A DNA stretch of 64,000 bases from positions 30,074,707 through 30,138,706 of the forward strand of contig CP137681.1 in the NCBI GenBank assembly GCA_037976565.1. Reading direction: 5' to 3'. The position numbers and the translations under genes are program-made. Below are positions 3,491 to 33,913 of this stretch, in pieces. The stretch comes from Mesocentrotus franciscanus (lineage: Eukaryota > Echinodermata > Echinoidea > Camarodonta > Strongylocentrotidae). Each line of letters opens with the position of its first letter. The stretch's first letter is position 1. Under the pieces are notes generated by a model. The model ran no database searches. It was not told the DNA's origin and was given only the letters and a program-made list of their open reading frames with translations.

Positions 3491-3639
3491 ATTTAGAGAC
3501 CTACATGGCGGGGCCCGCAGAACGACGGGGCTCCGGGGCCTCGAGCTCCGCCCCCCTCCCACTTTTTTGGAAAAATTATACTAAAGAGAAATAGAAAGAA
3601 AGAGAGAAAGAAAGAAAGAATAGTGACCTGCCAGTGTCA

Positions 3640-5455
3640 CAAAATAATGAGGTATCAAAATATGCTCATCTGACCGTGATTAAATGCCTAAAACCCCTGG
3701 GTTTCCGGGGCCTCTGTCCCCTGGATTCCACCTAGGGCCCTAAGGCGAGCCCATGGATACTCATCTGACCGTTATAAAATGCCTGAAACCCCTGAGCTTC
3801 TGGGGGTTCCGCTCCCTGGACCCCACGCCTATTATTGTCCTGCCAGTGTCACAAATAAGGTATCAAAATAAGCTCATCTGACCGTAATTAAACGCCTAAA
3901 ACCCCTGAGCTTCCAGGGGCTCTGCCCCCTGGGCCCTACCAAAAGCCCTAAGGCGGGCCCCTGGATACTCATTTGACCGTAATTTATTGCCTAAAACCCT
4001 TGAGCTTCTGGGGGCTCCGTCCCCTCGACCCAACGCCAATTAGTGACCTGCCAATGTCACAAATAGGTTATCAAAATATGCTCATCTGACCGTAATTAAA
4101 TGCCTAAATAAACCCCTGAGCTTCCAGGGGCTCTGCCCTCTGGACCCCACCTAGGGCCCTAAAACGGGCCCCTGGATGCTCATCTGACGGTAATTTAATG
4201 CCTTATACCCCTGAACTTCTGGTGTCTCTGCCCTCTCGACCCTACCAGTGGCCCTGAGGCGGGCCAATTAATGCTTATTTGACCGTTATGAAATGCCTAA
4301 AACCCCTGGGCTTCTGGGGCCCTGCCCCTAGACCCCGCCCCTGGACCCCACGCCAATTAGTGTCCTGCCAGTGTCATAAATAAGGTATCAAAATATGCTC
4401 ATCTGACCGTAATTAAACGCCTAAACCCCTTAGCTTCCAGGGGTTCTGCCCCCTGAACCCAACCAATGGCCCTAAGTCAGGCCCCTGGATACTCATTTGA
4501 CAGTAATTTATTGCCTAAAACCCCTGAGCTTCCGGGGGTTTCGCCCCCTGGACCCCATGCCAATTAGTGACCTGCCAGTGTCACAAATAGGGTATCAAAA
4601 TATGCTCATCTGACCGTATTTAAATGCCTAAAACCCCTGAGCTTCCGGGGCTCCGCCTCGACCCCACCAGGGCCCTAAGGCGGGCCCATGGATACTCATC
4701 TGACCGTTATAAAATGCCTGAAACCCTGAGCTTCTGGGGTTCCGCCCCTGGACCCCACGCGTATTATTGTCCTGCCAGTGTCACAAATAAGGTATCAAAA
4801 TAAGCTCATCTGACCGTAATTAAACGCCTAAAACCCCTGAGCTTCCAGGGGCTCTGCCCTCTGGACCCCACCTAGGGCCCTAAAACGGGCCCCTGGATGC
4901 TCATCTGACGGTAATTTAATGCCTAAAACCCCTGAACTTCTGGTGGCTCTGCCCCCTCGACCCCACCAGTGGCCCTAAGGCGGGCCCATTAATGCTTATC
5001 TGACCGTTATGAAATGCCTAAATCCCCTGGGCTTCTGGGGGCTCCGCCCCCTAGACCCCGCCCCTGGACCCCGCCCCCTGGACCCCACGCCAATTAGTGT
5101 CCTGCCAGTGTCACAAAATAGGTACCAAAATATGCTCATCTGACCGTAATTAAATGCCTAAAACCCCTAAGCTTCCAGGGGCTCTGCCCCCTGGACCCTA
5201 CCAATAGCCCTAAGGCGGGAACCTGGATACTCATTTGACCGTAATTCATTGCCTAAAACCCCTGAGCTTCCGGGGGTTCCGCCCCCTGGACCCCACCTAG
5301 GGCCCTAAACGGGCCCCTGGATGCTCATCTGACGGTAATTTAATGCCTAAAACTCCTGAACTTCCGGTGGCTCTGCCCCCTCGACCCCACCAGTGGCCCT
5401 AAGGCGGGCCCCTTAATGCTTATCTGACCGTTATGAAATGCCTAAAACCCCTGAT
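3640..5455 (+). repeat. tandem array of ~100-bp GC-rich/AT-rich units
   Basis: About 18 imperfect copies of a unit built as CTCATCTGACCGTAATTAAA, TGCCTAAAACCCCTGAGCTT, a GGGGGCTCCGCCCCCTGGAC hairpin-like segment, then CCTAGGGCCCTAAGGCGGGC. Spacing between CATCTGACCG words is mostly 85-115 bases. Every third or fourth unit carries an extra CCTGCCAGTGTCACAAATA segment, giving a higher-order period of roughly 330 bases. The same units occur in reverse orientation at about 18.4-20.8 kb. Confidence 0.85.
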
Positions 5456-9878: not shown

Positions 9879-10940
9879 TGTTCCAAGTTCAAGTTCAAGT
9901 TCAAGTTTTATTTATCTTTCTTTCATAACACACATTACAAATATGACATCAATATAACAAGTTAACAGAATATGGTGTTACAATAGAAAGATGAGGTGAC
10001 CTTGGTTGAAAGCAAGGCTTGTGGATTTAAGGTCCCTCATGATGAGTAGCTTATGAGTATGTCCTAAGAGAACAAACTCGTCAGATAAGAATAATGCATA
10101 CATTTAAATGCTGACAAACTAAAGTAACTAAACAACTGAGAAAATATAAACATAAATAAGTATAATAAAATCTACTAACTACTAAATAATGGCTATAAAC
10201 AAGAGAAACAGGAAAATACTACGAGCAACAGGACTGAAACACAGACAAAAACGAAACAAGACAGACAGATGAATAGATGTGAGAAACGGGAGTAGAATTA
10301 TGCTGACCTATATAGTAAATAATTTTCTTAAATATTGATCACAACTATAAATCTAGACGATATCGACTCAAATAAAGTAACTTCAGTTTGCGCTAAAATA
10401 CATAAATACTGACCGATTGCGCTATTCTTGGTTCAAGGGAATTCCAAAACCTAGGTCCAGTGGACCCCAAAGTAGTAAGGGCAAATTGCGTTCCAACAAG
10501 AGGTAAGTGATATGCTTGCGCCTGACGTGTGGAATAACTATGAACTTGGTATTTTTCTTAAATATTCTAGCCAAGGCTACTGGCAGTAGACCTGCATTCA
10601 ATTCATACATTAGAGCTCCTAGTTGCAAATGATAAATATCTTCAACTCTCAAAACACTACTATTATAGAAAAGAACATCTGTATGCGCAAGGTAGTGAGT
10701 ATTACAAACAATTCGTATTACTCTTTTCTGTACCAGTAGTAATTTATCCATTTGAGATTTGAACGAGTTACCCCAAGCTAGTACACCATAGTGCAAATAT
10801 GGCAAAATTAAAGTTGCGTACAACATACGTAAAATATTCAGTGGGAACACAGATTTCAATTTATAGATTACACCAGTATTTCTTGACAATAATTTACAAA
10901 GTTTACTAATATGGTACTTCCAATTTAAATGTTCCATCAC
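9879..10940 (-). pseudogene. CR1/Jockey-like LINE 3' fragment
   Basis: The open stretch 10940-10422 (172 aa, - strand) resembles the C-terminal thumb/connection of CR1/L2/Jockey-type reverse transcriptases: LYATLILPYLHYGVLAWGN, then LLLVQKRVIRIVCNTHYLAH. The catalytic palm is missing. A ~0.5-kb 3' UTR follows and ends in short tandem repeats of the hexamer AAGTTC (9883-9906; GAACTT on the - strand), the kind of 3' tail CR1-like elements carry. The element is 5'-truncated and dead. Confidence 0.75.
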
Positions 10941-17014: not shown

Positions 17015-20000
17015 CACTGGCGTACGGATGGAAGGGGAGCTTGGGGCATCACCCGAAATAAAATTGAAACGTGGTTTATTTATAATTCGATAGCAGTGAT
17101 TTACAAATGTTGCTGAAATGACATGATTTTCCGGGTTTTTTTCTCACTTTTTTTCAAATTATACTTTTGTATGCGTTTGTTGGAAAATGACAAATCCCCA
17201 AATTTATAGTCACTGAGGCAAAAAAAAACTAAAGTGCCCCTTTTTGACGTAGGAATGGTGCCCCCTTTTACTTCAGATAAGCGCCCTTTTTAAAATTCAA
17301 ATAGGTGCCCGTTCCACATTCTTATAAGTGCCTCTTACAAACTCTGATAAGTGCCCCTTTACCTCTGAAAATATCTGAGATGTGCCCAATTTTATTTTAA
17401 CAAATGCCCTTTCCTTTTTTAATAAGTGCCCCTTCCTCTTCAGATAAGTGCCCCTGTTTTATCTTTGATGGTTACCCCATTCTCACCTCTGATAAGTGCC
17501 CCCTTTTTCTAATAAGTGCCCAATTTCCTTCTCATAAATGCCCCTACTCACACCTCTGATAAATACCTCTATCAAAATCTCAAAGGTGTCCCTTTTCCTA
17601 CGACAAGTGCCATTTTTTGGGTAGTAAGTGCCCCTTTCTATTCTCACAAGTGCCCCTATTCATCTCATGTGAGTGCTCCTTTTCAGGTACAAGAAGTGCC
17701 CCTCACCACCTCTTATAATTGCCTTTTTTAATCTGAGGGGTGTCCCTTTTATTTTGACAAGAACTTCTTCTTATTCTTATTAGTGCCCCTTTTCATCGCC
17801 GGTGAGTGCCCTTATTCAAATGTGAGAGAAGCCCCATTTAACTTTAACTCTCTGATAAGTACCCTTGTTATTTTGACACGTGCCTTTTATCCTTCCTAAT
17901 TAGTGCCATTTTCCTTCTGATAATTGCCACTAATTCTCCTTTGAAATAAGTGCCCCTTTTCCGTTCTCATAAGTGCCTTTTTCATCTCTGGTAAGTGCCC
18001 TAATTAGGTGCGAGAAGTGCCCCATTTTCACATCTGATAATTCCCCTTTTAACTTTAACACGTGCTCTTTTTCATTTCTAATAAGTGTCCTTTTCCCTTT
18101 GAATATGTGCCCCTTTTCCTTTCACCATAATATGTGCTCATGACCGGGGGACGAAATGCGAGGGACGAGGAGCAGTGGCGTAATGAGCAAAAACGTTTTA
18201 GGGGAGGGGTGGGGCCGAAAAAAAAAATCCGCACCACCACCACTCTTACATGTTACATACAGGCCCGCGGAACGTTTCTCAAAGTGGGGGCTAAAGTATT
18301 TACGATCAGGTATAGAGCAAAACGAGCGAAGCAAGTGGAGCGTAAATTGACTTGGGGGGAACAGGGGCAAAGCCCCGGCGGGGGTCAAGGGGCGGAGCCC
18401 CATGAAGCTCAGGGGTTTTAGGCATTTATTTGAGGTCAGGATGAGCATAATTATTTTGATACCTTATTTGTGACACTGGCATGCAGATCACTAATTGGAG
18501 TGGGGTCGAGGGTGCGGAGCCACGGCCCCCAGAAGCTCTGGGGTTTTAGGCATAAAATTTCGATCAGATGAGCATCCAGGGGCCGCCTTCGGGCCCTTGT
18601 TGGGGTCCAGGGGGGCAGAGCCCCAGGAAGCTCAGGGGCTTTAAGCATTTAATAACGGTCAAATGATCATACAGAAGCTCCGGGGTTTTCGGCATTAAAT
18701 TACGATCAGATGAGCTTCCAGGGGCCGCCTTCGGGCCCCTGGTGGGGATCCAGGGGGCAGAGCCCCCAAAAGCTCAGGGGTTTTAAGCATTTAATAACGG
18801 TCAAATGAGCATACAGAAGCTCAGGGGTTTTAGGCATTTAATAACGGTCAGATGAGCATACAGGAGCCCGCCTTAGGGCCCTAGTGGGTTGTTTTGGGGT
18901 TAAACACCCCTTTGCTCTGTCAAAAACAAAAACACGAAGTATGGAGGGTAATTAGTATTTTTTAAAAAGAAATAAAAAGAAGTAATTTGATGACTGCACG
19001 CAAAGCTGTTATTTGGACTTTCTGACCCTTCCCAGAACTCAACCCTCAATTTTTGCTCTAGAAGGGCACTCCCCCTTGGTAAGGGATATTTCGCCCCTGA
19101 CGGGACTACTACTACTACTACTACTACTCAGGGGCGGCGATTTCTTTTCATGACCGGGGACGAAATGCGAGGGACGAGGAGCAGTGGCGTAATGACCAAA
19201 AACGTTTTTGTTGTTGTTTGGGGGCAGAAAAAATCTGCATCACCACCATTCTTACATGTTATATGAAGGCCCCGCGGACTTTTTCAAAGTGGGGAGGGGA
19301 GGCTAAAGTATTTACGATCAGGTAGAGGAAAGCAAGTGGAGCGTAAATTGGCGTGGGGTCCAGGGGCAAATTAGCCCGGGGGGGGTCCAGGGGCGGAGCC
19401 CCCGGAAGCTCAGGGGTATTAGGTATTTAATTACTTTCGGATGGGCATATTTTGATACCTTATTTGTGTCACTGGCATGCAGGTCACTAATTGGAGTGGG
19501 GTCCGGGGGCGGAGCCCCCAGAAGCTCAGGGGTTTTAAGCATTAAATTACGATCAGATGAGCATCCAGGGGCCGCCTTAGGGCCCTTGGTGGCGTCCAGG
19601 GGGGCAGAGCCCCAGGAAGCTCAGGGGCTTTAAGCATTTAATAACGGTCAAATGATCATACAGAAGCTCCGGGGTTTTCGGCATTAAATTACGATCAGAT
19701 GAGCTTCCAGGGGCCGCCTTCGGGCCCCTGGTGGGGTCCAGGGGGCAGAGCCCCCAAAAGCTCAGGGGTTTTAAGCATTTAATAACGGTCAAATGAGCAT
19801 ACAGAAGCTCAGGGGTTTTAGGCATTTAATAACGGTCAGATGAGCATACAGGAGCCCGCCTTAGGGCCCTAGTGGGGTTGTTTTGGGGGTTAAACACCCC
19901 CTTTGCTCTGTCAAAAAAACAAAAACACGAAGTATGGAGGGTAATTAGTATTTTAAAAAAGAAATAAAAAGAAGTAATTTCATGACTGCACGCAAAGCTG

Positions 20001-20929
20001 TTATTTGGACTTTCTGACCCTTCCCAGAACTCAACCCTCAATTTTTGCTCTAGAAGGGCACCCCCCCCCCTTGGTAAGGGATATTTCGCCCCTGACGGGA
20101 CTACTACTACTACTACTACTACTACTCAGGGGCGGCGATTTCTTTTCATGACCGGGGGGGGGGACGAAATGCGAGGGACGAGGAGCAGTGGCGTAATGAC
20201 CAAAAACGTTTTTGTTGTTGTTTGGGGGCAGAAATCTGCATCACCCCATTCTTACATGTTATATGAAGGCCCCGCGGACTTTTTCAAAGTGGGGAGGGAG
20301 GGGCTAAAGTATTTACGATCAGGTAGAGGAAAGCAAGTGGAGCGTAAATTGGCGTGGGGTCCAGGGGCAAATTAGCCCGGGGGGGGTCCAGGGGCGGAGC
20401 CCCCGGAAGCTCAGGGGTATTAGGTATTTAATTACTTTCGGATGGGCATATTTTGATACCTTATTTGTGTCACTGGCATGCAGGTCATTAATTGAGTGGT
20501 CCAGCGGAGCCCCAGAAGCTCAGGGGTTTTAAGCATTAAATTACGATCAGATGAGCATCCAGGGGCCGCCTTAGGGCCCTTGGTGGCGTCCAGGGGGCAG
20601 AGCCCCCGGAAGCTCAGGGTTTTTAGGCATTAAATTACGGTCAGAGGAGCAACCAGGGGCATGCACGCTTTAGGGCCCTTTGCGGGGTCCAGAGGGCAGA
20701 GCCCCCGGAAGCTCTGGGGTTTTAGGCATTAAAGGACAGTCAGATGAGCAACCAGGGGCATGCACGCTTTAGGGCCCTTGGTGCGGTCCAGGGGGCAGAG
20801 CCCCCGGAAGCTCAGGGAAAAATTATGCTATTTCAGCAACATTTGTAAATCACTGGTATCGAATTAGAAATATACCCTTCTTTAATTTTATTTGGGGGCA
20901 CTGCCCCAAGCCCCATCAGTACGCCAGTG
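17015..20929. mobile_element. ~3.9-kb element with CACTGGCGTAC inverted ends
   Basis: The left end CACTGGCGTACGGATGG and the right end CCATCAGTACGCCAGTG are inverted repeats. Similarity extends about 110 bases inward (TTGGGGCA..., AAATAAAATT, AATTCGATA, GTGATTTACAAATGTTGCTGA). Between them lie a minisatellite (17225-18125) and ~1-kb tandem units. No transposase frame is visible. It may be a foldback-type element that has collected tandem repeats, or two independent ends. Confidence 0.6.
17225..18125 (-). repeat. inverted copy of the GGGGCACTTATC minisatellite
   Basis: Repeated AAGTGCCCCTTTTC and CCTCTGATAAGTGCCCC, about 30-35 units of 22-32 bp. This is the reverse complement of the array at 7615-8640. 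Confidence 0.85.
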
Positions 20930-21639: not shown

Positions 21640-22828
21640 TTGATAGCGCATATTTCCTGGCACATTTGCCGCTCTGACGGCCATTAATTTTAATTATTAT
21701 CCTGGCTTTATGAATGCAGGGGTATAAACAAGAGAACAGAAAGTGTATTTTCTTCACAACCGTCGTTCTTAGTACATGCTGCGAACATGTGTGAAACGCG
21801 TGTGATCGTTTTCCATATTTGGTACAATATTTATTTTAATGGCACCCTTCATTGGTCGAGCATGCGTTTGACCCCCAAATGAATAATTCATCTGTATCCC
21901 GATTGGCCAGTACCGGTACCTAATTATCATAAGAAAAATAAAATTCAGAATGAATCGCTCGCCGAGCGAGATCGCCCGCGCGCTCCGCAAGCTATATACG
22001 CATGCATGTCTATAGTAACTGGGATTTCAGTCTGGATCAATTCATTTTCGCTTTATTTATGTAATTTCGGTAAACTAGGTAAGTGAATTGATTTTATTTT
22101 TTCCCAGGAGTAAATATAAGCGTTTGGTCTTAACCTTAATCAATTTTGAAACCCATGTTTTAAAGATGTTGAAGATTTTGAACAGAAATTGTATCATGCA
22201 TGCGATGAAAAAAAAACACGTCATGTTGTGTTGGCACCGTGCCCTAGCTTACTAATACTATACTAGGCCTGGCCGCACCGGTCGTGTGATCAGCCGGCTG
22301 GTCTGGCGATGGCGTGTATTTACTAACCGTTAAACTTCTACGCCACGGGTTCATGTTATCAAACAATCAAACATAATGTTAAAGATTGATATATTATAAC
22401 GTTAGGTTTTGGCAATGACAGGGCGCAAATAGATTTATGACAGCATAAAGTATGAAATGAATAATCATATATTGTGATTGCATCATCGATTCGTACTTTT
22501 AGTTTTAGTCGTGAGGTCATGCAGAGTGCAGAGAGAGAGAGAAGCCACACACTCGTAATAGTGAGTCGTGGGTTGAGAATGAATGAGTGGGGCGCGGCGC
22601 CGCGCAATTTTTTTTACACGCTAGCATAGCCATAGCCTGGCCATTTCTGTGATAAATACCATGGAAGCGACTGATATATTGTAAGAGTCTAGCAGCCTAC
22701 ATCTAGTCTGAAAGGAAAAAAAATCCTAATAGAAGAGGCGTAAATATTCACTCCTGAATGATAAACGCCTATAAACCAAAACAACAACAACAAGGTGCAT
22801 TATACAATAGTACATCATGCCTGGCAAT
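21640..22828. other. unassigned flank of the LTR element
   Basis: It begins with a GATAGCGC dispersed-repeat tail (to about 21720). The rest shows no coding signal. A GCTCGCCGAGCGAGATCGCC palindrome-like block near 21957 and a GCGGCGCCGCGC block near 22595 stand out from AT-rich surroundings. Confidence 0.4.
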
Positions 22829-23048
22829 TAATGTAGATTTGGCCTACAAACCGTTATCTACATGGATGTGAATCTATATGACTCACTAGAAAGCCGAAAA
22901 CAGCACTTACCTGAAATACTGAGGATCTTGTCCAATTGTCCAGCTTCAGGCTTGTGCAGTGTATTCAACTCTGGTCTGTCGGGCTCAGTGAGAGGACTAG
23001 CGCCCCCTTGTGGTGAAGGCTTGTGGGGGTGGGGTAACTCCTACTACA
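22829..23048 (-). repeat. 3' LTR
   Basis: This is the partner of 33687-33909 with no base substitutions noticed over 220 bp. It is preceded by the polypurine tract and followed by the CAAT target repeat. Confidence 0.95.
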
Positions 23049-23062
23049 TTCCCCCCCGTTTT
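23049..23062 (-). other. polypurine tract
   Basis: The - strand reads AAAACGGGGGGGAA immediately before TGTAG of the 3' LTR, the expected plus-strand primer position. Confidence 0.85.
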
Positions 23063-23922
23063 GAAAAACCCGGGCCTAACTGAACCAAGCCCGGGGAAAA
23101 GGCCGTCCCAAACCCCAAAAGGAGAAAAACAAAATATCCCTCCATTGTGACATCACAAAATATTATCTTAAGGGCACGTACTAAAAATGCCAAACAAGAC
23201 CCCAAACAAGCAAAACACGGGGCAAATGCATTAAAAAATTTATAGAAAATTTTTTTTTTTTTTAAATCTTTTAAAACCAACATAACTACTGCCTAAAAAC
23301 TAAAATTGCCAGGGGAGGTCCCCCACCCAAAACTATCCACGCCCCAATAGCGGTGAGCTATCCGCTTGTCCTCCCAGGCTACGGCGCCATCTTACCTACC
23401 CAAGAGGTACATTTCTCAGGTTTTTCGGAGAGTGACTGGAGAACCAGAAACTCGCCTAGGTCCCTCCGGCGCAGGAAGGAGGCGTTAGTTCCACTATAAC
23501 ACAGAGCGGGCCATTTGGAAGAAAGTCCCCTGGAACAACCAAAACATATGCCAACGGGCATTTATGGAAAAATCCAACCCAAAATACAAAAACATATTTA
23601 CATATGTGTATTTGCTAATGTAGCAAAAACAAGGTGATAGGGACTCAAAAGTCCCCACCGAAAATTACACTATAAAAACCTAACCGCTCCCTAGGGCTAC
23701 TGTGCCTTTGCTAATGTAGCAAAAACAAGATGATAGGGACTCAAAAGTCCCCACCGAAAATTACACTATAAAAACCTAACCGTTCCCTAGGGCTACTGTG
23801 CCTTTGCTAATGTAGCAAAAACAAGGTGATAGGGACTCGAAAGTCCCCACCGAAAATTACACCATGAAAACCTAACTGTTCCCGAGGGCTGCAGGAACAG
23901 AAAGTTCCCGCGGGTTGCCGAC
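23063..23922 (-). other. 3' untranslated region of the retrotransposon
   Basis: It shows no supported coding sequence. It contains three 96-bp direct repeats and a GC-rich stretch next to the polypurine tract. Confidence 0.6.
23611..23898. repeat. three tandem 96-bp repeats
   Basis: TTTGCTAATGTAGCAAAAAC starts at 23611, 23707 and 23803. Each unit continues AGGGACTC.AAAGTCCCC.ACC (hairpin-like GGGACT/AGTCCC) and ends CCC.AGGGCT. The first two are nearly identical; the third diverges at its end. Confidence 0.95.
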
Positions 23923-24724
23923 CTACGGGCCATAGAGCACTAGGGCGTTAACCCTAGTCTGCTCTAGGAGGGCCAGGAGACGGTCACCCCGTATCCCGGC
24001 GACTAAATCTCCTACCTCCCCGATATAGGCAGGGGTGGCGTAAATAACGCCCCCGCCGACGGGTAGGTGAGGAGAGTCGGTCTCCAACAACAACCGGCCC
24101 TGCGGAACCCTACATAGGGCAGTCCGCTGGTCCCTGGTGAAAGACTTCACCAGGGCGTTGAAGCTGAAGTAGACGTTGGGGAAAGTCCTTCCCCACGCCT
24201 CAACCTCCAGAGGGCCCAACGTGCAACAGTGGATATGGATCCTCTGATGCCTGTTGACCCTCCTTTGGGTCTCCAGCCTGCACACGCGGGAAGGTACATC
24301 GGAGGTTGGAGCCCCCTTCTCCCCGCGGATGTGCAGGATTAAAACCCTGCCGGTGGCACCGACCTTTCCCAGGATGGCCTGGAAAAGGTTCAGCTGAGCC
24401 GACCATGTGCCTGGGGGCATGGAATAATCTAATCCCATTTCCCCCAAGGCACTGACCCTGGTGTCGCAGATGAGCCTACCCAGGACATCCAGGGCTGGGT
24501 CATCAAAGCTCAGGGCGTGCTTCGGGTGCACCCCCACAGCCACCTTCCACCGGCGGTCGCCAGGGAATTTAATGTCCCGGTGCCTCTTGGGGTCGCAATA
24601 ATTAACCACGCCCCCACAAAGACGCACCGGTACCCGGGGATCCCTACCGAGATAGCCTCGATGCACTCCAGTCCCCTCTACCAGTCCTGGCCTCTAGCCG
24701 ATCTAAATGAAAATGGCTATCGAA
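23923..24724 (-). pseudogene. TatD-family metallo-dependent nuclease
   Basis: The open stretch 24666-23923 holds most of a TatD domain: GGVVNYCDP, WKVAVGVHPKHA, SALGEMGLDY (Glu ligand near residue 76), VLILHIRGEKG (His near 112), RIHIHCCTLG (His near 144-146) and RLLLETDSPHL (Asp near 197). The N-terminal metal motif H-F-H lies just upstream at 24715-24707 in another frame, so one frameshift near 24680 splits the domain. TatD proteins are Mg/Mn-dependent DNases/exonucleases. The wording of the motifs is closest to TATDN2-like animal proteins. In the retroelement context its role is unknown. Confidence 0.85.
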
Positions 24725-24742
24725 GGCCAGGGAATAGGAGGC

Positions 24743-25399
24743 TTAGAGGCAACCCGGCATATGAACTGCCCGGTCCCCTAGAGTGTACCGAGGAAGGCCC
24801 CGCCGACGCAGGAGGCGGAACTGCACCCGCAGCAGGAGTGGCCTTGGCGGGAACTGTGTTCCCGCCACCCTCATGAGATGGCGGTGCAACGCCCGTCGCC
24901 CTGAAACGGCAGCGGATTCAAGATCCCCGCCTTTGGGCTGCTCACCCCTCACCGGCGCGGCTGCAGTATCCTCAGGAATAGGAACCCTCCCGAGGAAATG
25001 GAGATGAGCGAGCTGGCCCGCATCCAACTTGGACACGAGCCACGCAAGGACACGCCAGTGCAAAAGCGCCGCCGGCGTGTTGAGGGGGCGAACAGTCACC
25101 CGAGAGGGAATGGCACCCCCCGACCGCCTAAGGAAAAGGAGCATGTCCTCCTCCATGGCAGCGGGGATGTTCCACTCCCAGTTATCGGGTGCCTCCGCGT
25201 CGACCATCCCCATCAGTCCCTCCAGCCGGGGAGAACCGATAAGGGATTGTGCAAGGAACCGAAGGCAAGCGACCTGCTGGAGAAACCGGGGCTCCCCAGC
25301 AAGGTGCTTGCCCTGGCAGAGGCGCAGCGCGATCGGCATGTGCGAGTAGACATGCTGCCTGAGTTTGATCCTCGGGCGTATCCCGCACATAGGACACAT
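24743..25399 (-). pseudogene. CCHH-like zinc finger and spacer of the third coding region
   Basis: 218 codons. It opens with CPMCG...LRQHVYSH, a CxxC-x10-HxxxH zinc-finger layout, followed by a mostly helical region (RFLQQVACLRFLAQSLIG, PAALLHWRVLAWLVSKLDAG). A TAA stop at 24745-24743 ends it, but the same frame continues after that stop into the HFH motif of the TatD domain, so the stop looks like a lesion within one longer frame. Confidence 0.55.
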
Positions 25400-25805
25400 C
25401 CCACGCCCCTTCTGCCTCTTGGCAGGTCCGCCAGCAGACCCGCCAAATGGCCGCTTTCCCTGGCCAGATCGGCCCCCAGGAAGCAGGCTCGGCAGGCGAG
25501 CCGCTGCACTCGCTTTCCTGACGGGAGGCCCTGCCTCCCGAGAGGTTAACCCTCCCTGGAAGACCGCTCCCGCCTAGGTGACCTCGTGCCATTGGGCTCT
25601 CCCGAGGTGCCCTGCGGACAGCCGAGGAGAGAGGGCCAGCAACAGGAGAAAATTCCCCCGTGTCCATGCCTTCCTCCGCGGGTGTCCCCGGGTCCGCTTG
25701 ACGTCGGGGACGGGGACCACGGCAGGTTCCGGGCACATAGTGCCCTGATCCGCCGTCCGGTCTCCGCCCCTGAGCCTGGAAGTTGTACTCCCTGGCCCAA
25801 TACAC
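25182..25805 (-). pseudogene. third coding region, central linker
   Basis: 207 codons, Gly/Pro/Arg-rich and low-complexity (PARRAPRES-like composition), without recognisable domains. It overlaps frames on both sides and may only partly be the real reading frame. The 25509-25213 frame, with CRACFLGADLARESGHLAGL, may be the real one for part of this stretch. Confidence 0.35.
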
Positions 25806-26458
25806 TAGGCATGGCGGAAAACTCCATGGAAGCCTTCCCCCAGAAGGGTGCTAGGTGAGCCAGGCCCGGATGAAAGCGTTGGCTTTCCGCCATACCCGGC
25901 TCCCACCAAGGAGTGTTGGGATCGTAGTACTGGAGTACCTCGTCCCCCTCGGCTACCTTCTCGGCCCCCAATAGGGGGTACCTACTGGCGTATTCCTCCA
26001 GAGGCAAACGCCCCCGGAGGTACTCATGCAGGCAGCTAACCCAGCCCGCATCATTGGCCGTCACTGCCCGCCCATACGCCCCGTCGAGGAACCCCAGGAC
26101 AACGTCCCAGGGAAGCTGCGACGGGCCAGACGGACCAGAACCCCGGATACGGAAGGTGTCTACCCTCCCGAGCCACTCCAGGACGCTCCTGGCCACCACT
26201 TCCGCCCTTGGAGGTGCCATGGCGGCCCTCCCACTGGTGAACCCCGGATTCCCAAATCCCCAGGATCCCCGGACCCCAGGATCCCCGGACCCCCAGGACC
26301 CCAGGATCCCCGAACCCCAGGATCCCGAACCCCAGGACCCTCGGGCCCCTCTTGCTCCCAGAGGACGCTAGACTCACATCCCCCTCTGAGAAGCTACCCA
26401 GGTCCTCATAGTCCCCCGGACTATCCGGCGGCAGAGGCAAATCCTCCGGTCTTTCCAT
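25546..26458 (-). pseudogene. third coding region, N-terminal part
   Basis: The ATG at 26458 starts an acidic, Pro/Ser-rich frame (ERPEDLPLPPDSPGDYEDLG). It runs into GGATCC/GGACCC-rich short repeats (26228-26345), where the frame changes. From 26220 a 224-codon frame carries an unrecognised domain with PWDVVLGFLDGAYGRAVTAN, YLRGRLPLEEYASRYPLLGA and HPGLAHLAPFWGKA. That frame also fails near 25750. Position after pol is the env position, but I see no signal peptide, transmembrane helix or envelope motif. Confidence 0.55.
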
Positions 26459-26500
26459 CTGTAGGGAAGGGAAGAGAAGGAGAGAAACCCACAATTAGTA
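26456..26500 (-). promoter_or_regulatory. 3' splice site before the third coding region
   Basis: On the - strand a TACTAAT branch-site consensus (26500-26494) is followed by TTTCTCTCCTTCTCTTCCCT and TACAG, with the AG at 26460-26459 directly abutting the ATG at 26458-26456. It lies about 70 bases after the pol stop. Confidence 0.65.
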
Positions 26501-26529: not shown

Positions 26530-27339
26530 TTACCTCTTCCCCCGCTCCACACATGGAGGACAATAATACTTATCGATATGGGTGCTCTCGCTGGGGGTTA
26601 CCCCTACGCAATCCCCATGAAACCAATCTTCGCAGCCGTCGCAGCCTATCATAAAACGGGTCTCATCATACGGCCGGCGACATAGACAGTACAGAGTCTC
26701 CGGGTCGACTCGCTTGCCCAGCTGGCACCACTCGGGTAAATCCCGGTCCCGGCATGGCTTTAAACGATCCTGGTGTACGGTGGAAATGGACTTCCGGAGT
26801 TCCACCCTATACAGGTCAGGGGTCAGCCTCTTGACCACCCTCCCTGGGCCTTTCCAAGGGCTGCTCAGCTTCTTACATTTGCCCTTGACCGTTGCAGTGT
26901 CGAGTACGTAGACTGGGTCACCCTCCTGGAACTGCCGCCGGAACGAATGTACGTCGTAATCGCGCTTCATGCGCATCTGGGCGCTCCGTAGACTAGCCCG
27001 GGCTGCCTCATGCGCAGCCTGGGTTGCTGTTACCAGCCTGCCCAAGTATTCCTCTCGATCCAAGGTCACATTGCCCCTGGGTAGAGGATACATCAAATGG
27101 GCTGGCTGGTTCACCTCCCGCCCGAGCATCAGCCGGTTGGCAGTATACCCGGTACTTCGGTTGACCGTAGCCCGAAGTGCTCCCGAGATCTGGGGCAGAT
27201 GCTCGTCCCATTTATTTTGGGCCCGCCCCACATAGCATCGGACTGCATCCATCAGGGTACGGTTATACCTTTCTACCTGGCCATTTCCGAAGGTCGGTAC
27301 GGCGTCGTCTTGGCCTTGTGGATCAGGAGAACCTTGCAA
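26530..27339 (-). pseudogene. pol: integrase C-terminal half fused to a PHD finger
   Basis: 269 codons in one open frame. [12 protein letters not shown] carries the catalytic Glu of the DDE core. [11 protein letters not shown] and [23 protein letters not shown] are the SH3/GPY-like C-terminal domain. After a short linker, residues 216-269 form a complete PHD finger: CLC, GCDGC, DWFH, DC, YCPPC (Cys4-His-Cys3). Its [13 protein letters not shown] and [10 protein letters not shown] blocks resemble KDM7/PHF2/PHF8 PHD fingers, which bind H3K4me3. No frame break separates integrase and PHD; the stop is at 26530. By inference the PHD could steer integration to marked chromatin. Confidence 0.9.
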
Positions 27340-27905
27340 ACCCCCTTAAAGAGCTTGCTTTCAAAATTTCGTCCCTGATCCGTAAAAATCGCGAACGGAT
27401 AACCGAAACGGCAGAAAAACTCCCCCACCGCAGCACGGGCAGTATCCTCCGCCGTCTGAGACGGTAGTGGGATACACTCTACCCACTTGGTGAACTGATC
27501 CACCATCATGAGAACATGCTCGTTTCCCTTGGACGACTTAGGCAATGGCCCAAGGAAATCCAGGTGAACCCGTTCCATTGGTGCCCCCGCGTGATAATTT
27601 CGCATGGGACTCTTACCGTACCTAGTTGCCTTCTTGTTCTGGTTGCAGGTCGAGCAAGTTCGGACATACTCCGCCACATCCTTGCCCATTCTGTACCAAA
27701 AGTACTTGGCCCGAATATATAGCTTGGTCCGATCCCTGCCAGGATGACCACGCCGGAAGATCATGACTCGCATACATGATCTCCTCCTCAATGACCTGGG
27801 CACTAGCAACAATAGACCCTGGTCCTCTCCCTTTTTACAAATGACCCCTTCGACCCGCACGAACTGAGCCCTGTTAATCCAGAGGAACTTCTCCTCCGAC
27901 CCCAC
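27273..27905 (-). pseudogene. pol: integrase, zinc-binding and catalytic core
   Basis: 210 codons. GHPGRDRTKLYIRAKYFWYR and CSTCNQNKK are the second half of the HHCC domain; the first His lies in another frame just upstream. VHLDFLGPLP (Asp 1), MMVDQFTKWVECIPLP and FTDQGRNFES (Asp 2) form the catalytic core. The frame is lost before the catalytic Glu. Confidence 0.9.
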
Positions 27906-28070: not shown

Positions 28071-28712
28071 CTACCACGGCTCCGCCCCATCCGAAGAAGT
28101 GCAGATCACCGCATGGGTCATTCCGACACCCGCCTCTGGTTCCAGTTCCGGCGAGGCCTTTCCCATCGCGGCACGGCCAGCAAGGGGGACCACGTTGTCC
28201 ACTGCCTCCCCGAAGGCGGCCCAATTCTGATGAGCCTTGGAGCAGTATCTACACCCTCCACACGGCAGGTGTTCTAGGCTAAAGCCCAGTCGGTATTCCT
28301 CGCAGAGGGGCTCGGCCGGTGGAACCCTAGAGAGGGCATCAGCATTAGCATGCTTCTTGCCCGGACGATGTTCCAGACGCATGTCATACTGACTGAGCTC
28401 CTCCATCCAGCGAGCCAATTGCCCCTGAGGGTACTTGAAATGGAGGAGCCACGTTAGACTGCTGTGATCCGTACGGACCACAAACGGTTTCCCTAGCAGA
28501 TAGTGGCGGTATTGCCGGGTGAATTTGACCACCGCTAGCAGTTCCCGCCTGGTGACGCAGTACCGCCGCTGTTCCGCGGTTAGCGCACAACTGCCATAGG
28601 ACACCACCCTTTCTTCCCCCCCTTGCACCTGAAGGAGTTCCGCCCCAATGGCGTCATTGGATGCATCCGTATCCAGAATAAATGAATCCCGGCTGTTAGG
28701 CATAGTGAGCAC
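28071..28712 (-). pseudogene. pol: RNase H and connection
   Basis: 213 codons. FILDTDASNDAIGAEL has the first catalytic Asp, RRELLAVVKF the Glu, VRTDHSSL the third acidic residue, and HANADALSR the last. The typical Gypsy tail (SQYDMRLEHRPGKKHANADA) is intact. Downstream of about residue 140 the match fades into a linker without clear homology, which continues in shifting frames to 27905. Confidence 0.9.
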
Positions 28713-28762: not shown

Positions 28763-29206
28763 CTACTCCCCAGTGAAACGGCTGTTTCCCGGTAATCCGG
28801 TAGAGGGGAACCGCAACGGCAGCATAACCCTGATGAAAGCCCGGTGATAATTAGCCAGGCCCAAAACTGCTCGACGTGCCTTGTTGTCCTTGGAGGGCCA
28901 TTGCCGGACTGCCCGGATATGTTCCTCCCGGAGATGGACCCGGTTAGCACTCACTTCCTCCCCAAGAACTCTACCTTCTCTTGGAAAGGACGCATTTTTA
29001 GGCTTCAATTTAAGCCCAAATTTAGCGAACCTTCCCAGGACTTCTTTTAAATTGGCGAGATGGTCCTCCACTGACCTCCCCAGGACAACCACATCATCCA
29101 GGAAAGCCAGGACAGTCTGCCAATTGATACCCCTCAGGATTAGGTCCATCGCCCGCGAAAGTCGCAGGCGCATTACATAGACCGAACCCCATACGCACAA
29201 ACTCAT
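28763..29206 (-). pseudogene. pol: reverse transcriptase, catalytic FLDD and thumb
   Basis: 147 codons. AMDLILRGINWQTVLAFLDD carries the two catalytic aspartates, then VEDHLANLKEVLGRFAKFGL and LKLKPKNASF, the Gypsy thumb. The RT-RNase H connection (RQWPSKDNKA, LGLANYHRAFI) follows and the frame fails at about 28790. Confidence 0.9.
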
Positions 29207-29327
29207 AGAGCCCGTACTTAGTGGTAAAGGCGGTTTTCTTCCTATCCTCCGCCTGAATTTTTACTTGGTAGTAAGCCGAATTAGCGTCCAACTTAGAAAA
29301 CCAAGCATTATCCGCCAAGGTATCCAA
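29094..29327 (-). pseudogene. pol: reverse transcriptase, palm part 1
   Basis: 77 codons with block A (WFSKLDANSAYYQVKI, catalytic Asp), KTAFTTKYGLYEFVRM and GLCNAPATF. The frame shifts after this; the catalytic FLDD block is in the overlapping next frame. Confidence 0.9.
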
Positions 29328-29872: not shown

Positions 29873-30764
29873 ATATACGCGTTCTTCCCGCCCCGTGTAA
29901 GGAACAGGGAATCAGAAGGACAGGTAGGTTTAGCAGTGGTTCAAACACAAAATCCCCTAACCGTTGATCTAAAACCCCGGTCACCCTCTTAACGGCATTG
30001 GGGGGGATGATAACCCGCTTGCGGACATACACCCTAGCTACCCCCATCCGCCTGGGGTTGTCCCCATGCTGCATGGGAATTTCCACTCCCCCTAGCAGTA
30101 ACTTGGGGCGATACAAGTGAATAACCGCCCTATGTTTACCGAGAAAATCCATCCCCAGTAACATGTCATCCGAAATGGGTGCAACATACAACTGCTCGGA
30201 GAACTCTTGCCCTCCCAACAGAATACTCACCGGCCCCACTACTGACCCACCCATGCTCATATCCCTACCTGCAGCATGTAGTACGGCCTCCCGCAGTTTC
30301 TTGGGTTGCGGTTTCAGGTGTTGAAGCACCCGATCCGAGATGATAGTCACCTCGGCGGCCGTGTCCACTATTGCTCTAAGGGGGAAACCCCCTATCACTA
30401 TAGGGATATTAAGGGAGGAACTGGACTGCAACCGGCAAACCACTACCTCCGCCTTTTCCTCCGAATCCGGGTCCGGATCCGAGGTGGTATCCGGCATCGG
30501 GTCTAACGACCCGACCGCCCGTGAAGCAGTTGGAAGTCCACAAAACGTAACCTCCCCTATATACCGGGAAAGTGCCTCACCCAGCTCCGTGGAGGCTTCA
30601 TTTAACCCAATCTCACCAGGAACAGGCTCCCCCACCTGCTTGACAGCGGGTTGGGGGATGACTGCCCGATCTCCCGGCGACCCGGTCAACCACTGGCCTC
30701 GTTCGGGTCGGGTCGGGGGTTGGCCTCCTCCTCCGACCCGCTGGAGTTTACCTCCTCGGGGCAA
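29865..30764 (-). pseudogene. pol: aspartic protease region of pol
   Basis: 299 codons. The retropepsin-like domain starts near residue 110: IPIVIGGFPLRAIVDTAAEV contains the DT(A) catalytic triplet (DTA instead of the usual DSG/DTG), with ISDRVLQHL after it and DDMLLGMDFLGKHRAVI as the second conserved block. The start overlaps the end of the gag frame in another frame, so a frameshift or processing boundary is expected there. It would cut the Gag-Pol polyprotein. Confidence 0.85.
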
Positions 30765-32169
30765 TTAACAGAGGAAACTCGCGCGTTTCCCCTGTCTCCC
30801 CGAGGTGTGGGACATTGATTCCGGAAATGCCCGAGCCCCCGCAGCCGTAGCACCGGTCACCCCCAGGGGACTTAGCCCGCCCCCGGGAAGCCTCCGGCCT
30901 GGACTGGAGGGTATCTAGGAGCGTCCGGATGTCCCGCTCCAAGTTAGCTACCCGGGCCTCTAAGCGGCCCTGGCGCTCCGCCATTCGGCGCTCTAGTGCA
31001 GCGAGTTGTCCGTCTTCAGGCCGACTAGGAGTTTGGAGGGGTAGGTCTACTTTGCGGACTTCGAACTCCCCCCCGTCCTCCAAGGCGACAGACTTAACCG
31101 GACGCCCCCGCCCGTACATGGCCCGGTACACGTGCTGGTGCCACTGGATATGCCCCACTGCTTCCCCAATGGTGGCGGGATGTTGGGTCAGCGCGTGACA
31201 TCCCGCCTCCCGGTTCAGGCACCCCTGACACAGGCGGAGGACCGCCTGCTGTTGGGAATAAGGCCCCTGGACCCCGGGGAATGCTCGGAGAGCTAACCCG
31301 AGCACCCGATCGGACCACTCGGGCAGGGATTCCTCTGGCCCCTGCTTGGCAGATGCAAACTCTAGTTGAGCAGACTCCGGCAACCCGCCGTGGTCGAAGC
31401 GCTGCGCCAACTTCTGGACCAGCGGGAAATACCCCAGGCCCGGCTCTTGTTCCAGAGTCAGGCTCAAATAATCCCCCGCTTTCCCTTCCAGGCACCAGCT
31501 TAGCTGATTCACCCTCTGGGGCCAATCCCATTCCTGCTGATCTGCAAAAGCAGTGAATTTATGGAAGAACGCCCTCCAATTCCCGCGCCCATCAAAGGAG
31601 ACAGTCCTGGGGAGTGGCTGATACTGTGCTCTGCCAGTGCCTCCCCACCTATCCCTCCTGAGAGCAGAGACCCGACGGACCGGTTCTTCGGGAATCGGAA
31701 GGGGCCCTAGCCGACCCCTCTGATACCCTGGGATGGGACTGCCCCTCCCTGGGATTTCACTACCCTCCCGGCCCACTGGGGGTTGGGATTCCTCCCGGAT
31801 ATCCCTGGAGCTGAATCCCAGGCATGACGGGACCTGCTGGTCCCGCCCGGCCGCTGCCCCCCATCTATTAGGTCGCCCACAGGGGCCCCCCTCTTGGGAA
31901 ACTTCCCGGGCGAGGGGGCTTGCACACCCCTGCTCCATGGCCGGGGCACCCATCCAAGAACGCCCCCCTGGCTCTCCCATCACAAGGGGTCCGCCCTCCC
32001 CCGGGGTTCCCCTAGATCTATACTGGGGCCTATGGGGGTCAAGCGACTGGTGCATTCCCCCGGGAGTGGAGGATCCGATTGGGGCTACACCCCGGGGCCA
32101 ACCCGATACATCCCCTTGGTTAACTAACGGAGGCGGATACACATCATAGGGGTACTGGTGTCCCCCCAC
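30748..32169 (-). pseudogene. gag: gag, capsid and nucleocapsid
   Basis: 473 codons. A Pro/Gly/Arg-rich first third is followed, from about residue 190, by a Retrotrans_gag-type capsid domain: RTVSFDGRGNWRAFFHKFTA, WCLEGKAGDYL, LPEWSDRVLGLALRAFP. Then a coiled-coil-like stretch (LERRMAERQGRLEARVANLE) and a zinc knuckle that begins CYGCGGSG. The knuckle's His and last Cys lie in another frame, so a frameshift falls inside it at about 30825. It packages element RNA in family terms. Confidence 0.85.
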
Positions 32170-33666: not shown

Positions 33667-33686
33667 GGTTATGCTCGCAGCGCCAA
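33667..33686 (-). other. candidate primer-binding site
   Basis: Directly inside the 5' LTR the - strand reads TTGGCGCTGCGAGC. On the + strand this is ...GCAGCGCCAA, consistent with pairing to a tRNA 3' end finishing in CCA. I could not assign the tRNA. Confidence 0.55.
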
Positions 33687-33909
33687 TAATGTAGATTTGG
33701 CCTACAAACCGTTATCTACATGGATGTGAATCTATATGACTCACTAGAAAGCCGAAAACAGCACTTACCTGAAATACTGAGGATCTTGTCCAATTGTCCA
33801 GCTTCAGGCTTGTGCAGTGTATTCAACTCTGGTCTGTCGGGCTCAGTGAGAGGACTAGCGCCCCCTTGTGGTGAAGGCTTGTGGGGGGGTGGGGGTAACT
33901 CCTACTACA
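33687..33909 (-). repeat. 5' LTR
   Basis: Read on the - strand it begins TGTAGTAGGAG and ends CTACATTA. Compared with the other LTR the only differences I see are lengths of two G runs. There is no TATA box or AATAAA, so initiation would be TATA-less. A perfect splice donor, CAG|GTAAGT (- strand, 33763-33768), lies inside. Confidence 0.95.
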
Positions 33910-33913
33910 CAAT

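What the first reader, a model, noticed from the sequence alone, without database searches (positions are those of the whole stretch)
23923..26458. A TatD-type nuclease with a zinc-finger region sits in the env position of an LTR retrotransposon
Seen: downstream of the integrase stop and before the polypurine tract, the same strand encodes a CCHH-like finger followed by TatD motifs (HFH, GVHP, GEMGLDY, LHIRG, HIHCCT, ETDSPHL). All recognised metal-ligand motifs are present although split by a frameshift and one stop. Known: TatD proteins are metal-dependent DNases. Inference: the element carries an accessory nuclease, perhaps acting on cDNA ends, host DNA or RNA-DNA hybrids. It is inside the LTRs, so it moves with the element.
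Basis: partly seen in the sequence, partly recalled or inferred. Interest (0 to 1): 0.9.

Follow-up and report, generated by a model that had tools for sequence, protein, structure and literature searches.

The report
Retrotransposon carrying its own TatD nuclease
A family of jumping genetic elements in sea urchins, starfish, molluscs and their kin carries an extra gene for a zinc-finger protein with a DNA/RNA-cutting TatD domain, and natural selection has kept that domain in shape, so it probably helps these elements copy themselves.

Summary
Minus-strand window 26220-23923 encodes the remains of one accessory protein: N-terminal region, CCHH-like finger domain, TatD nuclease (Pfam E 3.6e-24). 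It lies between a PHD-ended integrase and the 3' LTR of an 11,081-bp Ty3/Gypsy-like element with a 4-bp target-site duplication; the LTRs differ by no substitution in 220 columns.

It is no one-off. In this genome 10 of 18 integrases of this lineage have TatD 2.3-5.8 kb downstream on the same strand, against 0 of 132 other integrases scored. Seventeen LTR pairs enclose TatD sequence. Relatives occur in echinoderms, molluscs and a brachiopod; one Acanthaster protein joins integrase, PHD, finger and TatD.

It is selected. Unsaturated between-lineage dN/dS is 0.12-0.45, and metal ligands are kept in 54-57 of 57 relatives; among shortened derivatives dN/dS is about 0.6-1.1. Against it: the window and a broken 82% copy give 0.67.

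So this is a nuclease 'ORF3' under purifying selection. The precedent is the DEDDy exonuclease ORF3 of bdelloid elements (PMC5408684, passages); I found no report of a TatD one. Substrate and step are inferred.

The parts
33687..33909 (-). 5' LTR (223 bp), TGTAG...CTACATTA
   Evidence: self-comparison; boundaries; no substitution against the 3' LTR in 220 aligned columns, 3 gap columns
33910..33913 (.). target-site duplication ATTG, 5' side of the element
33668..33686 (-). putative tRNA primer-binding site, TTGGCGCTGCGAGCATAAC, next to the 5' LTR
   Evidence: sequence; the tRNA was not identified
30748..32169 (-). gag-like ORF (473 aa)
   Evidence: no significant Pfam match; called gag from position and from copies across the genome
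29865..30764 (-). aspartyl protease
   Evidence: Pfam PF13975 E 1e-9
28763..29327 (-). reverse transcriptase pieces in two frames
   Evidence: Pfam RVT_1, E 4.5e-9 and 6.2e-6
28071..28712 (-). RNase H
   Evidence: Pfam RT_RNaseH E 4e-32
27273..27905 (-). integrase: H2C2 zinc domain and rve core
   Evidence: Pfam E 5.1e-14 and 1.1e-11
26530..27339 (-). integrase C-terminal part ending in a PHD finger
   Evidence: Pfam PHD E 1.4e-10
25546..26220 (-). accessory protein, N-terminal ORF (putative helical domain)
   Evidence: best of 1304 window ORFs against a profile of 12 relatives' N-termini, but E 0.36 only: suggestive
24989..25399 (-). accessory protein, CCHH-like finger plus helical domain (LNTPAALLHWR)
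   Evidence: tblastn to P0070 39%, E 1.5e-20; alignment A2; model pLDDT 92
24743..24745 (-). TAA stop between finger ORF and TatD start
24677..24739 (-). TatD N-terminus with the HFH metal-ligand motif, in the finger ORF's frame
23923..24666 (-). TatD nuclease domain, main ORF
   Evidence: Pfam PF01026 E 3.6e-24
23605..23892 (-). three 96-bp tandem repeats between the TatD stop and the polypurine tract
23049..23060 (-). polypurine tract AACGGGGGGGAA
   Evidence: sequence
22829..23048 (-). 3' LTR (220 bp)
22825..22828 (.). target-site duplication ATTG, 3' side of the element

Best explanation
A lineage of Ty3/Gypsy-like LTR retrotransposons with a PHD-ended integrase carries, in the env position, a third gene for a protein with an N-terminal helical domain, a CCHH finger domain, a disordered linker and a TatD nuclease domain. 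SHOWN: it is bounded by LTRs and a target-site duplication, occurs in many copies, is tied to this integrase lineage, and its TatD domain has been under purifying selection. INFERRED: the protein is an active metal-dependent nuclease that the finger domain brings to the element's own nucleic acid. There it trims or removes 3' ends or RNA that RNase H leaves behind (RNA in RNA:DNA hybrids, primer remnants, flaps of the cDNA) and so helps make integration-competent DNA. Acting on host R-loops or damaged DNA at the target is the next most likely role. The element proliferates with the gene and leaves derivatives without pol and, in those read, mostly without the TatD core, which must be moved in trans.
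Against: No activity, expression or protein is shown. The window copy is broken by several frame changes. The window against its closest copies gives 0.67 (L003, 66 changes, 205 codons; that copy has stops), 0.69 (L005, 30 changes, 114 codons) and 0.5-1.1 on pieces with 3-6 changes. 8 of 18 integrases of the lineage, some of them fragments, have no TatD match nearby. Three of 57 aligned relatives (P0105, P0027, P0057) lack the Asp at the last ligand column. A finger pattern was found in 36 of 107 relatives only; many of the rest are short or partial, but some long ones lack it. The finger domain has no confident fold match, so nucleic-acid binding is a guess. Pairwise counting on short pieces mixes live and dead branches, and pairs are not independent.
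Confidence: 0.8

Rival explanations
1. The TatD gene is an unselected passenger: a host TATDN-like gene caught by the element that merely hitch-hikes.
For: The window copy is broken. Several copies lost the TatD core (L006, L007, L010, L013, L016). 8 of 18 integrases of the lineage lack a TatD match. Window-L003 dN/dS is 0.67. In bdelloid elements the authors report no significant departure from neutrality in intragenomic ORF3 evolution (PMC5408684, passages).
Against: dN/dS 0.12-0.45 in ten unsaturated between-lineage pairs against about 0.6-1.1 among derivatives. Metal ligands conserved across phyla. Long open frames in relatives, about 700-1126 aa.
Confidence: 0.08
2. The TatD domain is a catalytically dead or non-nuclease binding module, kept for substrate or partner binding.
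For: The finger and N-terminal domains suggest a binding protein. Inactive nuclease derivatives are known in piRNA proteins (discussed in PMC5408684, passages). P0027 and P0105 lost the conserved Asp.
Against: All six ligand positions are kept in nearly all of 57 relatives.
Confidence: 0.15
3. It serves the host or the element in defence: it degrades competing retroelement cDNA, viral nucleic acid or host silencing RNAs rather than taking part in the element's own replication.
For: A TatD protein (QatD) belongs to a bacterial anti-phage system and its profile matches here (E 6.9e-11, far below its cut-off). The selection data fit any useful nuclease.
Against: No separate host locus was shown. 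The gene stays within LTRs and tracks one integrase lineage. QatD's curated cut-off is not reached.
Confidence: 0.12
4. On the state of this copy: the frame changes are assembly or sequencing indels, and the copy is intact and young.
For: The LTRs differ only by three gap columns in C-rich runs and by no substitution. A codon-bias path shows 14 segments but no in-frame stop in gag-pol.
Against: The path model penalises stops, and meets stops at 26497, 25576 and 24745 in and before the accessory gene. Pre-insertion damage of a copy moved in trans would look alike. The second 11-kb copy (C1) is also interrupted in TatD.
Confidence: 0.4

Closest known systems
DEDDy exonuclease ORF3 of bdelloid rotifer Vesta/Juno LTR retrotransposons (PMC5408684, passages read)
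   Same: A 3'-5' nuclease gene as third ORF of an LTR retrotransposon, with catalytic residues kept.
   Different: Different enzyme fold and metal-ligand set; rotifers, not echinoderms and molluscs; no significant departure from neutrality was reported there, whereas TatD here shows dN/dS well below 1 between lineages. The ORF here has its own finger domain.
TatD family nucleases (E. coli TatD/YcfH/YjjV; human TATDN1, TATDN2, TATDN3)
   Different: Element-borne, preceded by a finger domain and linker; below the NCBIfam curated cut-offs for the named bacterial subfamilies.
Ty3/Gypsy LTR retrotransposons (Metaviridae)
   Same: LTR, gag-like ORF, protease-RT-RNase H-integrase order, PPT, 4-bp TSD.
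   Different: PHD finger at the integrase end and the finger-TatD gene in place of env. The clade was not determined.
Errantivirus-type env-bearing Gypsy elements (recalled)
   Same: A third gene between integrase and 3' LTR.
   Different: The gene here is of nuclease type; no env domain was found by Pfam, and transmembrane prediction was not run.

Membership tests
TatD family nuclease (PF01026) | Profile match above the gathering score | tested here: met
   window ORF 86 bits against a cut-off of 27; relatives scanned 93-143 bits, except the chimeric P0006 at 21.7
TatD family nuclease (PF01026) | Metal ligands HxH, E, H, H, D | tested here: met
   all present in the window, split over two frames; 54-57 of 57 relatives
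TatD family nuclease (PF01026) | TatD barrel fold | tested here: met
TatD family nuclease (PF01026) | Metal-dependent nuclease activity | not testable with these tools
   needs protein
Ty3/Gypsy LTR retrotransposon | Paired LTRs with TSD, PPT and PBS | tested here: met
   (PBS putative)
Ty3/Gypsy LTR retrotransposon | Domain order PR-RT-RNase H-INT | tested here: met
Ty3/Gypsy LTR retrotransposon | RT or integrase phylogenetic placement | not tested
   no reference RT set was fetched
Nuclease-ORF3 LTR retrotransposon (bdelloid DEDDy kind) | Nuclease ORF downstream of integrase inside the LTRs | tested here: met
Nuclease-ORF3 LTR retrotransposon (bdelloid DEDDy kind) | Nuclease of the DEDDy fold | tested here: not met
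   TatD instead; hence a new variant, not a member
env-bearing element | env glycoprotein between INT and 3' LTR | tested here: inconclusive
   no env family among Pfam matches of the accessory ORFs; transmembrane or fusion features were not tested
Qat anti-phage QatD | NCBIfam QatD curated cut-off (230 bits) | tested here: not met
   41.7 bits for the window ORF; 40-80 bits for four relatives

The most novel reading that the evidence does not exclude
An ancient animal retrotransposon lineage, spread over echinoderms, molluscs and brachiopods, depends on its own R-loop or hybrid-resolving TatD nuclease: a second, element-encoded enzyme beside RNase H that finishes cDNA ends or clears RNA:DNA hybrids during reverse transcription and integration, with the finger domain as its targeting module. 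Non-autonomous derivatives need it in trans.
Probability: 0.35. Interest if true: 0.8.

Novelty: new variant of a known kind. Interest (0 to 1): 0.65.

Why it matters
Accessory genes in the env position of LTR elements are usually env or unknown (recalled). A second nuclease type, this one with signs of purifying selection and a built-in near-neutral contrast, turns 'do captured nucleases help retroelements?' into a testable question. It may also explain why invertebrate genome annotations hold many 'putative deoxyribonuclease TATDN2' genes: at least some such gene models carry integrase or protease parts of retroelements (P0067, P0077), which warns against counting them as host repair-gene expansions.

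Tried and rejected
Chance or frame artefact: rejected by Pfam E 3.6e-24 and ligand conservation. One-copy capture: rejected. env gene: no env domain found by Pfam; not excluded.

In print: searches for TatD or TATDN2 with retrotransposon, Gypsy, LTR retrotransposon, transposable element, integrase, Metaviridae, sea urchin and transposon listed no paper whose title or shown abstract reports TatD as a retroelement gene. Passages with TatD/TATDN2 in PMC5840709, PMC6962438, PMC5408686 and PMC11574390 concern a gene neighbour, an annotated gene near the giant squid Hox genes, a human retrocopy and host nucleases. PMC7545183 (wheat) and the remaining listed papers were not opened. PMC6338049 on accessory domains has no 'TatD'. 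The library holds open-licence papers only; Repbase was not searched.

Full report
WHAT IS THERE. On the minus strand the window holds an LTR element from 33909 down to 22829 (11,081 bp). The LTRs (33687-33909, 22829-23048) start TGTAGTAGG and end CTACATTA, are flanked by ATTG on both sides, and align with no substitution and three gap columns. Inside, in order: a gag-like ORF, aspartyl protease, reverse transcriptase, RNase H, H2C2-rve integrase ending in a PHD finger, then the accessory gene, three 96-bp tandem repeats, a polypurine tract and the 3' LTR. The accessory gene shows an N-terminal ORF (26220-25546), a finger ORF (25399-24743) and TatD (HFH at about 24727-24677, the rest 24666-23923). 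Pfam gives TatD_DNase at 3.6e-24 for the main ORF.

STATE OF THIS COPY. A codon-bias path through gag, pol and the accessory gene changes frame often (14 segments, one change possibly the normal gag-pol one) but meets no in-frame stop in gag-pol; in and before the accessory gene it meets 26497, 25576 and 24745, besides the terminal stop. With LTRs free of substitutions this suggests either sequencing or assembly indels or a copy damaged before insertion and moved in trans. I cannot separate these without reads. The path model disfavours stops, so it is a weak test.

RELATIVES ELSEWHERE. Three protein searches returned 107 different proteins, five of them used as bacterial outgroup. Names typed from the tables give 20 echinoderm proteins (6 species), 9 mollusc proteins (9 species) and one from the brachiopod Lingula; five more are in MAGs named Sedimenticola or Thiodiazotropha (clam symbionts as recalled), probably host DNA (inference), and most of the rest are unnamed. 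A finger pattern occurs in 36 of 107; the long ones mostly share a layout of variable N-terminus, CCHH finger with an NSPAxLxHWR-type helical domain, linker and TatD. Two join it to retroelement parts. P0067 of Acanthaster planci has H2C2, rve, PHD and TatD by Pfam with the finger between; its integrase is 60% and 47% identical to the window's two integrase pieces. P0077 of Mytilus edulis has aspartyl protease, an integrase piece (41% over 56 residues to P0067), finger and TatD. Both are gene models, so introns may have been imposed. Clusters P0103, P0105, P0095, P0091 and P0078 hold 29, 28, 26, 19 and 17 member sequences. In a 101-row tree the window falls in a starred 15-row set (98/86) that includes Diadema and Lytechinus proteins, so the host is probably an echinoderm (inference).

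THE WINDOW'S OWN GENOME (773 Mb, 21 contigs, unnamed). TatD gives 88 match places. The LTR gives 40 matches; by coordinates I pair 34 into 17 pairs (one LTR of the 6,119-bp pair is partial), and each pair encloses a TatD match; six stay unpaired. Sizes: two near 11 kb (window 11,081; C1 11,020), 14 between 4,977 and 6,119, and one of 22,825 (probably nested). None of the 15 other than the two 11-kb copies has an integrase match (which scored 150 of 911 candidates), and all 15 have a gag match (90 of 162 candidates scored; both checked by eye), often with several stops: pol-deleted derivatives. In the held loci L006, L007, L010, L013 and L016, TatD residues up to about 96-100 run straight into about 220-247, so the catalytic core is gone; L003, in a 5,462-bp sister element, keeps the core region but has stops.

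ASSOCIATION. Of 18 integrase matches at 60% identity or more, 10 have TatD 2.3-5.8 kb downstream on the same strand (C16, C1, C4, C2, C18, two on C8, C11, C7, C21) and none has it upstream. Of the 132 other scored matches, none has it downstream and one has it upstream. Fisher P is 3.7e-11, descriptive only, as I drew the 60% line after seeing the list and copies of one family are not independent.

SELECTION (Nei-Gojobori counts on in-frame pieces kept apart). Ten between-lineage pairs with dS between 0.1 and 0.6: L028-L018 0.21 (194 codons, dS 0.35), L028-L027 0.21 (155), L018-L027 0.26 (176), L011-L025 0.12 (117), L022-L011 0.32 (97), L011-L029 0.31 (116), L025-L029 0.34 (101), L015-L030 0.45 (222), L015-L024 0.39 (169), L030-L024 0.45 (133); L012 repeats L011. 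Pairs with dS above 1 give 0.14-0.61 or no estimate and are unreliable. Window against short copies: L006 0.13, L007 0.15, L010 0.20, L013 0.21, L016 0.22, L017 0.14, L019 0.35, L021 0.47 (64-90 codons); L009 0.38 and L023 0.35. Window against its closest copies: L003 0.67 (66 changes, 205 codons) and 0.84 (3 changes), L004 1.09 (4 changes) and no change in 78 codons, L005 0.67, 0.52 and 0.69 (6, 5 and 30 changes). Among L006, L007, L010, L013, L016 and L019 the 12 pairs printed (at least 50 codons, dS above 0.03) give 0.62-1.14; pairs of these six with L021 give 0.58-1.30 (L005-L021 0.57, L003-L021 0.53, L004-L021 0.43, L017-L021 0.73), and pairs of L017, not shown to be a derivative, with these six give 0.17-0.30. 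For window-L006, 7 non-synonymous of 22 changes against a neutral share of 0.74 (my assumption) gives P 4e-5; for L006-L010, 6 of 8 gives 0.66. So constraint is seen between lineages and is weak or absent among derivatives; the higher values for the closest pairs fit broken copies but also weaken the case. Pairs share branches and are not independent.

HOW IT PROBABLY WORKS. E. [quoted passage not shown] I therefore favour an element-encoded enzyme that trims 3' ends or RNA in hybrids during cDNA synthesis or integration. That step is inference. Defence, and host-DNA or R-loop targets, remain open.

NOVELTY. The nearest precedent read here is the DEDDy exonuclease ORF3 of bdelloid LTR elements (PMC5408684, passages), whose authors found no significant departure from neutrality. 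I found no report of a TatD gene in a retroelement in the searches listed under Tried and rejected; that library covers only openly licensed papers. I call it a new variant of a known kind.

Noticed in passing
G000:C13:25380233-25385537 and 13 similar 5-6 kb elements: LTR-bounded derivatives keep gag (often with stops) but lack integrase matches; in five of those read, TatD has lost its core. LTRs close to the window's on decayed interiors suggest movement in trans.
   Followed up: partly
G000:C20:24947359-24976225: Twelve TatD match places in about 29 kb (29-57% identity): a local cluster of a diverged TatD lineage, maybe nested or tandem elements or host genes.
   Followed up: no
window 23605-23892: Three 96-bp tandem repeats inside the element between the TatD stop and the polypurine tract.
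   Followed up: no
window 26530-26700: The integrase ends in a PHD finger, as in the Acanthaster relative; possibly a chromatin-targeting module (inference).
   Followed up: partly
window 18138-20643: About 1-kb unit repeated in tandem (91% identity over 1541 columns), with shorter GC-rich subrepeats.
   Followed up: no
window 3621-5454: Tandem array of related repeats, pieces about 78-94% alike.
   Followed up: no
window 10422-10940 (-): 172-aa ORF that reads like the C-terminal part of a LINE reverse transcriptase (recalled resemblance; no Pfam match).
   Followed up: no
proteins P0072, P0074, P0075, P0076, P0086: Finger-TatD type proteins in records named as bacterial MAGs (Sedimenticola, Thiodiazotropha); probably clam-host DNA binned with gill symbionts (inference).
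   Followed up: partly
G000:C8:8638014, C16:13548714, C15:6941117, C8:9832863, C14:19774114: Integrases of the same lineage (66-87%) without a TatD match downstream: losses, truncations or a TatD-less branch.
   Followed up: no
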